Positions 1 through 62,762 of a stretch of 64,000 bases of DNA are shown in pieces; the stretch's first letter is position 1; every line of letters begins with the position of its first letter. The DNA is from Bifidobacterium pullorum subsp. gallinarum (GTDB lineage: Bacteria > Actinomycetota > Actinomycetes > Actinomycetales > Bifidobacteriaceae). The position numbers and the translations under genes were made by a program. The notes under the pieces were generated by a model. It had not been told where the DNA came from and made no database searches. It saw only the letters and a list, made by a program, of their open reading frames with translations. The stretch covers positions 1 through 64,000 of the forward strand of contig NZ_JGYX01000006.1 in the NCBI RefSeq assembly GCF_000741215.1, in the 5' to 3' direction.

Positions 1-290
1 GGCTACCCGTCGAAGCCTTGGTGGGCCATCACCCCACCAACAAGCTGATAGGACGCGACCCCATCCCATGCCGCAAAAGCTTTCCCAGAATCCCATGCGG
101 TCATCTGGAGCATCCGGCATTACCACCCGTTTCCAGGAGCTATTCCGGTGCATGGGGCAGGTTGGTCACGCATTACTCACCCGTTCGCCACTCTCACCCC
201 GGCGCAAGCGCCAGGGATCCCGTTCGACTTGCATGTGTTAAGCACGCCGCCAGCGTTCATCCTGAGCCAGAATCGAACCCTCCACAAAAA
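1..290 (-). rRNA. rrs: 16S ribosomal RNA, 5' part (cut by window edge)
   Basis: Read on the minus strand, this stretch is the first ~290 nt of a bacterial 16S rRNA. It shows the universal 5' signature (GATTCTGGCTCAGGATGAACG), the CTTAACACATGCAAGTCGAACG block and the GTGGCGAACGGGTGAGTAA block. The variable V1 segment and the leading TTTTTGTGGAGGG are of the bifidobacterial type. The gene runs off the left edge, so the remainder and the 23S/5S genes are outside the window. The mature 5' end is placed at about 287-291 from the known bifidobacterial 5' sequence. Confidence 0.97.
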
Positions 291-22019: not shown

Positions 22020-22093
22020 GGGCCCGTAGCTCAGGTGGTTAGAGCGCATCCCTGATAAGGATGAGGTCGGAGGTTCAAGTCCTCCCGGGCCCA
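22020..22093 (+). tRNA. tRNA-Ile (GAT anticodon)
   Basis: A full cloverleaf is present: acceptor GGGCCCG/CGGGCCC, D arm GCTC, anticodon stem CATCC/GGATG with loop CTGATAA (anticodon GAT), T arm GGAGG/CCTCC with TTCAAGT, discriminator A. The CCA end is not encoded. Confidence 0.98.
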
Positions 22094-22105
22094 CTTCAGA
22101 ACAGG

Positions 22106-22132
22106 AAAGCGGCTTTTACGGCCGCCTTTTTT
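22106..22132 (+). terminator. terminator between tRNA-Ile and tRNA-Ala
   Basis: AAAGCGGC and GCCGCCTTT arms surround a short loop and are followed by a run of six T. Confidence 0.8.
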
Positions 22133-22143
22133 GTACTGGATGC

Positions 22144-22219
22144 GGGGCTATAGCGCAGCTGGTAGCGCATCTGCTTTGCAAGCAGAGGGTCGCCGGTTCG
22201 AACCCGGCTAGCTCCACCA
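22144..22219 (+). tRNA. tRNA-Ala (TGC anticodon)
   Basis: Cloverleaf with acceptor GGGGCTA/TAGCTCC, anticodon stem TCTGC/GCAGA with loop TTTGCAA (anticodon TGC), T arm CCGGTTCGAACCCGG, discriminator A and an encoded CCA (22217-22219). Confidence 0.98.
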
Positions 22220-39115: not shown

Positions 39116-39349
39116 TGTGGATAACAATCTGGATCGTATGCGGGAGAACGGTTATCCACAGGTGTGTGAATGTGGATAAGTGAAGGACAGCGTGTGGATA
39201 AGTCTTGAAGTTATCCACCGGCAACGGGCGGCTCCGCGCGTATCCACATGTTAGGCGTGGTTGCGCACGCATTGTCCACCGCGATTTTGCGTGTCGTCCA
39301 CCAGTTATCCAGAGGGTTTACCCACATTTGTGAATAAGTATGTGGATAA
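39116..39349. other. DnaA-box cluster upstream of dnaN (origin part 1)
   Basis: Five perfect TTATCCACA boxes are seen (39116-39124 rev, 39152-39160 fwd, 39171-39179 rev, 39193-39201 rev, 39341-39349 rev). Near matches lie at 39211, 39240, 39305, 39318 and 39329. In Actinobacteria the dnaA-dnaN interval is the usual oriC, so this is the best origin candidate. The stretch from about 39315 to 39370 is the most AT-rich part and could be the unwinding element. Confidence 0.85.
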
Positions 39350-42663: not shown

Positions 42664-42728
42664 TTATCCACACCCTTGCGTGTTGAAATGACTGGATTGT
42701 GAATAACATTCGTGTAATTTGTGGATAA
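42664..42728. other. DnaA boxes upstream of dnaA (origin part 2)
   Basis: Two perfect boxes (42664-42672 fwd and 42720-42728 rev) and one near match (42698-42706 rev) lie 78-142 bp before dnaA, in the interval to rpmH. They may serve dnaA autoregulation, a second origin part, or both. The rest of 42587-42901 should hold the divergent dnaA and rpmH promoters. Confidence 0.8.
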
Positions 42729-46157: not shown

Positions 46158-46287
46158 TTATCCACAGTTATCCACGTATGTGTGGATAATTCTGTGGATA
46201 ACTTTTTCGTTGAAATATCAACGATTATAGGCAATTCATGTTGACTTGTGGAATGAGTTATCCACATTGTTGATGACGTTATCCACA
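46158..46287. other. DnaA-box cluster upstream of parA (third cluster)
   Basis: Five perfect boxes (46158-46166 fwd, 46181-46189 rev, 46193-46201 rev, 46258-46266 fwd, 46279-46287 fwd) and one near match (46168-46176) flank an AT-rich stretch (46202-46240). It sits between rsmG and parA, about 7 kb from the dnaN cluster. It might be an accessory origin part, a DnaA titration site or a DnaA-controlled parA promoter. Confidence 0.85.
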
Positions 46288-62485: not shown

Positions 62486-62655
62486 TAAAAGAAAAAAGGG
62501 GGCGGGAGAGAAGGGGATGTTCCCGCCCCCTTATACCGGAGGGAGCTGGTTGGGGGACGCTCCGTCCGGTCCCAGAAGCCTATAGTTGGGGGGGGAAGGC
62601 CTCTGGATAACTTACTCAGGGGTAAGATTTCCACGCAGACTGTCGCCTGCCTGTA
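62486..62655 (-). ncRNA. 6C-type small RNA (two C-rich-loop hairpins and terminator)
   Basis: On the minus strand a TATAAT (62662-62667) precedes a transcript of about 170 nt with no reading frame. Hairpin 1 pairs CCAGAGGCCT (62597-62606) with AGGCTTCTGG (62572-62581) around a loop with eight C. Hairpin 2 pairs ACCGGACGGAGC with GCTCCCTCCGGT (62535-62570) around a loop with five C. A terminator stem GGGGGCGGGA/TCCCGCCCCC (62498-62530) and a T-rich tract follow. Two hairpins with C-rich loops are the defining trait of the actinobacterial 6C RNA family, which in mycobacteria and Streptomyces gives an abundant small RNA. Such C-rich loops could pair with G-rich ribosome-binding sites. Confidence 0.82.
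62498..62530 (-). terminator. intrinsic terminator of the 6C-type RNA
   Basis: Ten-bp GC stem, then CTTTTTTCTTTT on the minus strand; the strongest intrinsic terminator in the window. Confidence 0.92.
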
Positions 62656-62688
62656 TAAAGCATTATACGACGTTCAGTCCGTGCTTCG

Positions 62689-62762
62689 AGCCTCCTGTCG
62701 GGATCGAACCGACGACCTGCCGCTTACAAGGCGGCCGCTCTGGCCATCTGAGCTAAGGAGGC
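62689..62762 (-). tRNA. tRNA-Thr (TGT anticodon)
   Basis: Complete cloverleaf on the minus strand: acceptor GCCTCCT/AGGAGGC, anticodon stem GCCGC/GCGGC with loop CTTGTAA (anticodon TGT), T arm GTCGG/CCGAC with TTCGATC, discriminator T. CCA is not encoded. Confidence 0.98.

What the first reader, a model, noticed from the sequence alone, without database searches (positions are those of the whole stretch)
62486..62667. Unannotated 6C-type small RNA between rpf and tRNA-Thr
The sequence shows a TATAAT, two hairpins with C8 and C5 loops, and the strongest intrinsic terminator of the window, with no reading frame. Established knowledge: 6C RNA is an actinobacterial family defined by two C-rich loops. 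Inference: it regulates mRNAs by pairing with G-rich ribosome-binding sites, which are frequent here (for example in ppc and the AhpF-like gene).
Basis: partly seen in the sequence, partly recalled or inferred. Interest (0 to 1): 0.7.

Follow-up and report, generated by a model that had tools for sequence, protein, structure and literature searches.

The report
Bifidobacterial three-C-loop small RNA
In 108 of 112 bifidobacterial genomes examined there is a structured RNA gene, missing from the Rfam catalogue and usually lying just after a threonine tRNA gene, whose three cytosine-rich hairpin loops are predicted to pair with ribosome-binding sites of messenger RNAs, much as is reported for the 6C RNA of other actinobacteria.

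Summary
The minus strand at about 62655-62487 holds a five-hairpin RNA (folding z-score -6.3). A covariance model built from eight relatives finds it in 108 of 112 genomes of the genus (Gardnerella included), 113 of 151 of the family, and, among 297 genomes of the order, only in that family. Of 35 base pairs, 33 show changes on both sides that keep pairing; the controls are far lower. Loops H2 and H3 are more conserved than their stems.

It is not a member of Rfam 6C by score, and 6C is undetected in 37 of 37 genomes of the genus. Yet its last two hairpins have the 6C layout. Models of either RNA rank the other's site first within short loci, but not genome-wide. Homology stays open.

Most likely mechanism: antisense pairing of C-loops with G-rich ribosome-binding sites. 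Transcription is unproven. Verdict: new RNA family, a 6C-like variant of a known kind.

The parts
62688..62762 (-). tRNA-Thr (TGT), upstream neighbour of the RNA gene
   Evidence: ARAGORN and Rfam; on the same strand upstream in 23 of 23 loci and found in 14 of 20 fetched loci of other genera
62662..62667 (-). TATAAT, predicted -10 box of an own promoter
   Evidence: Sequence; a TANNNT box of at least 4 of 6 lies 25-75 nt before H1 in 55 of 78 distinct loci, 36% in shuffles. Promoter activity untested
62487..62655 (-). predicted small RNA transcript, about 169 nt
   Evidence: From about 7 nt after the -10 box to the T tract; ends inferred, no transcript data
62635..62650 (-). H0, leader hairpin GCAGGC-GACA-GTCTGC
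   Evidence: Minimum-energy fold; similar leader hairpins seen by eye in relatives, not tested for covariation
62611..62626 (-). H1, small hairpin CTTAC...GTAAG
   Evidence: Fold; 5 of 5 model pairs show a change on both sides, 88.2% of cells paired
62572..62606 (-). H2, hairpin with loop TTCCCCCCCCAACTATA (C8)
   Evidence: 10 of 10 model pairs have a change on both sides; CCCC in the loop in 67 of 79 distinct rows, one of the other 12 (L089) being cut off by the end of its stretch
62536..62569 (-). H3, hairpin with loop GTCCCCCAACCA (C5)
   Evidence: 9 of 9 model pairs have a change on both sides; CCCC in the loop in 76 of 79 rows, loop identity 0.80 against 0.62 in the stem
62498..62530 (-). 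H4, terminator hairpin with loop ACATCCCCTTCTC
   Evidence: 9 of 11 model pairs have a change on both sides; UCCCC in 79 of 79 rows, biased because 57 of 82 rows came from a pattern containing that loop, but CCCC is also in 20 of 20 rows of other genera, which were found by the model
62487..62497 (-). T tract of the intrinsic terminator (TTTTTTCTTTT)
   Evidence: Sequence

Best explanation
The minus strand at about 62655-62487 carries a conserved, structured non-coding RNA gene of the Bifidobacteriaceae, likely transcribed from its own promoter, whose three C-run loops likely act as redundant seeds that pair with G-rich ribosome-binding sites and would block translation without Hfq. Shown: the conservation, the covarying stems, the C-run loops, the terminator hairpin with T tract, and the place behind tRNA-Thr. 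Inferred: transcription, the exact ends, pairing with mRNAs, the direction of the effect on translation, and independence of Hfq (no search for Hfq was made). The H3 plus H4 pair has the layout of 6C RNA; H2 is a further C-loop hairpin whose C-run is missing in some lineages.
For: Model R1 finds it in 108 of 112 genus genomes, 101 of 105 of the good ones. Covariation: 33 of 35 pairs, 362 double-change cells against 74.4 in shuffles, 94.3% of cells paired against 42.0-55.8% in slid versions. H2 and H3 loops are more conserved than their stems, 0.681 against 0.585 and 0.801 against 0.619. UCCC-bearing loops are target-binding sites of LhrC, the terminator loop included (PMC4132741, passages), and 6C is reported to bind panD and dnaB mRNA, by C-rich loops and without a chaperone according to the cited title (PMC8628891, passages). 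In 44 start regions of the window the loops reach -10 kcal/mol or lower more often than in coding controls: 24, 31 and 22 of 44 against 52, 124 and 31 of 220 for H2, H3 and H4.
Against: No transcript data were available. Loops shuffled in letter order pair with the start regions better (H2: -10.88 against -13.46), equally (H3: -11.83 against -11.89) or only slightly worse, within one sd (H4: -10.19 against -9.58), so the pairing shows composition, not tuned seeds. Of 11 GTTGGGGGA sites outside the gene, one lies at a ribosome-binding site; none of the five sites listed before ATG in G003, the nearest relative, has that context. None of 5 sites of the H4 complement outside the gene lies at a start of an ORF of 60 aa or more. 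The 9-mer before ATG occurs in 77 of 112 genomes but, among the sites read, recurs at one gene only within small groups. The AhpF-like example is not conserved. The same review's figure legend says that 6C raises, not lowers, panD and dnaB.
Confidence: 0.6

Rival explanations
1. A cis-acting leader or attenuator of the downstream rpf gene: the terminator hairpin would be switched by the C-run loops competing for its G-rich arm, so the RNA would control read-through into rpf.
For: An Rpf-like N-terminus lies downstream on the same strand in 50 of 79 loci by pattern and in 9 more by eye in the same output. The loops are complementary to the G-run of the terminator's own 5' arm (sequence).
Against: In 20 of 79 loci no rpf was recognised in the 700-1500 nt read downstream, and the RNA is kept (the pattern is imprecise). 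The distance to rpf varies from 78 to 836 nt. The minimum-energy fold keeps the terminator whole.
Confidence: 0.15
2. A protein-titrating RNA (CsrB-like logic): repeated near-identical C-run loops would bind an RNA-binding protein and take it away from mRNAs.
For: Two or three similar loops per molecule (CCCCAA in 54 of 79 H2 and 73 of 79 H3 loops), high conservation, no conserved mRNA target found.
Against: No candidate protein was sought or is known to me; the H4 loop differs after its C-run (CCCCUUC); the nearest characterised analogues (6C, LhrC) pair with mRNA.
Confidence: 0.17
3. Only a terminator and processing trailer of tRNA-Thr without a function in trans.
For: The RNA usually lies behind tRNA-Thr, with a gap of about 24-27 nt in four loci.
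Against: Three covarying hairpins precede the terminator, H2 and H3 loops outlast their stems, and the RNA is present in six loci of other genera where no tRNA-Thr was found in the fetched stretch (one of these has only 142 nt of upstream sequence).
Confidence: 0.08

Closest known systems
6C RNA (Rfam RF01066), actinobacterial small RNA
   Same: Successive hairpins with C-run loops, a T-rich tail after the last in several loci. In one 6C locus (L276) both C-runs stand in UUCCCCCCAAU, close to UUCCCCCAAC of many H2 loops here. Models of either RNA rank the other's site first within short loci: R2 on 32 6C loci, 21 of 22 hits of at least 10.8 bits on the 6C site and strand (my count); R3 on 28 loci, 22 of 23 hits of at least 16.5 bits on this RNA (my count). 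Many of these loci are close relatives of each other.
   Different: No Rfam 6C hit. Three C-loops, not two; C-runs of 8, 5 and 4 here. Place: behind tRNA-Thr and usually before rpf; no tRNA in the stretches fetched around six 6C loci, and 6C is reported at a fixed place near Ms1 RNA in mycobacteria and S. coelicolor (PMC6582537, passages). A 6C model does not single this RNA out genome-wide.
LhrC1-5 of Listeria monocytogenes (UCCC-motif sRNAs of Firmicutes)
   Same: Three redundant CU-rich sites with a UCCC motif, one of them in the terminator loop; Hfq not needed for the lapB effect (PMC4132741, passages).
   Different: No sequence kinship tested or implied. LhrC exists in five copies of 111-114 nt; this gene has one match in nearly all genomes, is G+C-rich and has all three sites in closed loops.
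sRNAs reported in bifidobacteria
   Same: Intergenic RNAs of the same genus: 11 in B. animalis KLDS 2.0603 (PMC4338058, section 24); RNase P, tmRNA and 4.5S RNA plus riboswitches in B. breve UCC2003 (PMC5746004, section 15).
   Different: No listed neighbour is named tRNA-Thr or Rpf, so this RNA does not appear to be in either table; some neighbours are 'hypothetical', and the supplementary sequences were not read.

Membership tests
6C RNA (RF01066) | Scores with the Rfam covariance model | tested here: not met
   No 6C match on the window at gathering threshold, on the 261-base region at E up to 10, or on 16 related loci at E up to 5. 0 of 37 genus genomes match at E up to 0.001, with stricter filters. 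The control genome C. glutamicum rings only below the cut-off, so the cut-off is strict.
6C RNA (RF01066) | Two successive hairpins with C-run loops | tested here: met
   H2, H3 and H4: CCCC in 67, 76 and 79 of 79 distinct rows.
6C RNA (RF01066) | Typically six C in each of the two loops (PMC4046766, passages) | tested here: not met
   Window: C8, C5, C4. Longest C-run is five in 50 of 82 H2 and 58 of 82 H3 loops and four in 79 of 82 H4 loops. C. glutamicum 6C itself has eight.
6C RNA (RF01066) | Common descent with 6C | tested here: inconclusive
   Mutual best ranking within loci but weak single scores, and not genome-wide; convergence on C-loop hairpins is not excluded.
6C RNA (RF01066) | Place near the Ms1 RNA gene | not tested
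   This RNA lies between tRNA-Thr and rpf; Ms1 was not searched for.
C-loop antisense sRNA | Loops bind mRNA ribosome-binding sites | not testable with these tools
   Only predicted pairing; needs experiments.
Intrinsically terminated stand-alone sRNA gene | Conserved structure with covariation, terminator, no conserved ORF | tested here: met
   transcription not shown.

The most novel reading that the evidence does not exclude
This is the lost 6C RNA of the bifidobacteria: a relocated, diverged 6C that gained a third C-loop hairpin and moved behind tRNA-Thr, and serves as the family-wide, Hfq-free, multi-seed translational regulator, in some species released from a tRNA-sRNA precursor.
Probability: 0.35. 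Interest if true: 0.75.

Novelty: new variant of a known kind. Interest (0 to 1): 0.62.

Why it matters
Bifidobacteria are major gut commensals (recalled), and in the papers found here their post-transcriptional regulators are hardly described. A near-universal RNA family, with one match in nearly all genomes and strongly conserved loops, gives a concrete handle: one gene to delete and one set of loops to mutate. It would also show whether actinobacteria without detectable 6C keep its function in another molecule, and whether C-loop antisense control was invented more than once.

Tried and rejected
Rfam hits on the region (ar7, mir-H20, sraA, BjrC80 and others) all lie far below their gathering scores and were discarded. 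A first RNAalifold on the MAFFT alignment of 23 loci found only 12 pairs, because loops and arms of unequal length were misaligned; a hand-set structure on eight rows was used instead. Alignment A4 was fitted to that structure, so pair counts lean towards it; the slid and shuffled controls are. Target searches by loop complement in the own genome, across 112 genomes with 51 loci read, and for the AhpF-like gene with 30 of the matching loci read gave no conserved target. The energy comparison did not beat shuffled loops. The cis-leader reading was weakened. Model R2 on 22 of the genomes without an R1 hit found three at E up to 1, one of them convincing (G153, E 2.4e-5); 18 further family genomes without an R1 hit were not named and not tried. 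The 23 non-bifidobacterial loci that match the terminator pattern do not match the RNA model (best E 0.57), while one of the six 6C loci in the same call does weakly (L029, E 0.0065). Three of the best 6C-site scores fell from R1 to R2 (L029, L255, L268) while many rose, and off-site scores rose a little too.

Rows not used: one search held 95 stretches, 80 of them listed; 57 of those listed are bifidobacterial and went into A4 with the window, 20 loci of other genera and 4 further loci. L140-L154 were not used.

Full report
WHAT IS THERE. The fold is far more stable than shuffled sequence (z -6.28, 0 of 200). The claim of the strongest terminator is approximately right (third of 36 in a crude scan).

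CONSERVATION. DNA search finds the stretch in 23 of 39 genomes, all in the genus, the own genome included: 22 of 24 other genus members. In those 23 loci tRNA-Thr(TGT) lies upstream on the same strand every time. A covariance model from eight relatives finds 108 of 112 genus genomes, one match each except in two genomes. In the family it finds 113 of 151 genomes and 5 of 16 genera. In 297 genomes of the order it finds 21, all in the family. Named carriers include many Bifidobacterium species and Gardnerella. The 23 non-bifidobacterial loci that share the terminator pattern do not match (best E 0.57). In other genera tRNA-Thr is found in 14 of 20 fetched loci, up to about 0.9 kb away; one of the six others has only 142 nt upstream. 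Four genus genomes gave no hit with either model. The window's nearest relative is G003, one of whose contigs has the length of a contig of B. pullorum DSM 20433.

STRUCTURE IS UNDER SELECTION. On 79 distinct rows, 33 of 35 pairs have a change on both sides with pairing kept; 362 such cells against 74.4 in shuffles; 94.3% of cells paired against 42.0-55.8% when partners are slid. The alignment was fitted to the structure, which favours it, but the margin is large. Loops hold while stems change: pairwise identity 0.801 in the H3 loop against 0.619 in its stem, 0.681 against 0.585 for H2, about equal for H4. CCCC stands in 67, 76 and 79 of 79 loops of H2, H3 and H4; the H4 figure is partly built in, because 57 of 82 rows came from a pattern that contains that loop, but it also holds in 20 of 20 rows of other genera. 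H2 is the least constant: CCCC is missing in 8 of 20 rows of other genera and in 4 of 62 genus rows, one of which (L089) is only cut off.

EXPRESSION SIGNALS. A -10-like box of at least 4 of 6 stands 25-75 nt before H1 in 55 of 78 distinct loci, against 36% in shuffles. By eye, a CGTATNATG-like motif stays about 50 nt before H1 even where tRNA-Thr is 237-317 nt away, as in Gardnerella. No RNA data were available, so transcription remains a prediction. One published lead: in B. longum BBMN68 under oxygen a tRNA-Thr gene (tRNA39) is the one named exception that stays up at 60 min while most tRNA genes do not (PMC6244367, one passage); whether it is the tRNA-Thr beside this RNA was not checked.

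RELATION TO 6C. Rfam 6C does not score here and is undetected in 37 of 37 genus genomes (with stricter filters), while 43 of 248 genomes of the order have it, all in other families. Layout is nonetheless alike: 6C has a C-loop hairpin followed by a second C-loop hairpin. R1, run without filters on 32 6C loci, gives 12 of 15 hits of at least 10 bits on the 6C site and strand. R2, which adds distant bifidobacterial relatives, gives 21 of 22 hits of at least 10.8 bits on the site (my count). A 6C model made here (R3) gives 22 of 23 hits of at least 16.5 bits on this RNA in 28 loci (my count), some of them in the H2-H3 rather than the H3-H4 register. Against kinship: single scores are weak, many loci are close relatives of each other, and in whole bifidobacterial genomes R3 lists other places, not this one. 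Similar composition and hairpin shape could explain the mutual ranking. I therefore do not file it as 6C.

MECHANISM. By analogy, UCCC loops are mRNA-binding sites in LhrC, the terminator loop included (PMC4132741, passages), and 6C of mycobacteria is reported to bind mRNAs (PMC8628891, passages; the original paper was not held; the review's legend gives a positive effect on its targets). The loops pair better with 44 start regions of the window than with coding controls, but not clearly better than shuffled loops. One of 11 GTTGGGGGA sites outside the gene lies at a ribosome-binding site; that context is not among the five sites listed for G003. The AhpF-like gene pairs strongly here and in G003, and in most other orthologues does not; ppc has AAGGAGG with a GGGG run upstream. 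The pairing mechanism is thus the best inference, with no target shown.

RIVALS. A cis role for rpf has synteny in its favour (50 of 79 by pattern plus 9 by eye) and the remaining 20 loci against it. Protein titration by repeated loops is not excluded. A mere tRNA trailer does not explain covarying hairpins and conserved loops.

IN PRINT. Searches for bifidobacterial small RNAs returned listings, of which I opened five papers that deal with bifidobacteria. Two list small RNAs, and the tables that I read (PMC4338058 section 24; PMC5746004 section 15) do not appear to contain this one; the passages that I saw of PMC6244367, PMC8164766 and PMC7701253 do not mention it. Supplements were not readable, and most subscription papers are outside the library.

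Noticed in passing
39116-39349, 42664-42728 and 46158-46287: Thirteen TTWTCCACA sites in the window (0.29 expected), twelve of them in three clusters, near YidC-like and ParA-like genes: probably the replication origin region, 16-23 kb from the RNA.
   Followed up: partly
L132:5148-5282 and L138:2933-3067 (B. miconis, same contig); G124: Two copies of the RNA on one B. miconis contig, and a second weaker match in G124; the other carriers have one match each.
   Followed up: no
L020, L061, L085 and eight loci of other genera: The H2 loop lacks its C-run while H4 and, in most of them, H3 keep theirs, so the two-hairpin H3-H4 core looks like the essential part.
   Followed up: partly
B. longum BBMN68 (paper PMC6244367): A tRNA-Thr gene is the named exception that stays upregulated after 60 min of oxygen; reads from an adjacent small RNA could be one reason, if it is the same tRNA.
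   Followed up: no
22020-22219 (+): tRNA-Ile(GAT) and tRNA-Ala(TGC) lie together with no rRNA match near them in the window; such a pair usually sits inside an rRNA operon (recalled).
   Followed up: no
1-288 (-): The window begins inside a 16S rRNA gene (5' part only).
   Followed up: no
   Followed up: partly
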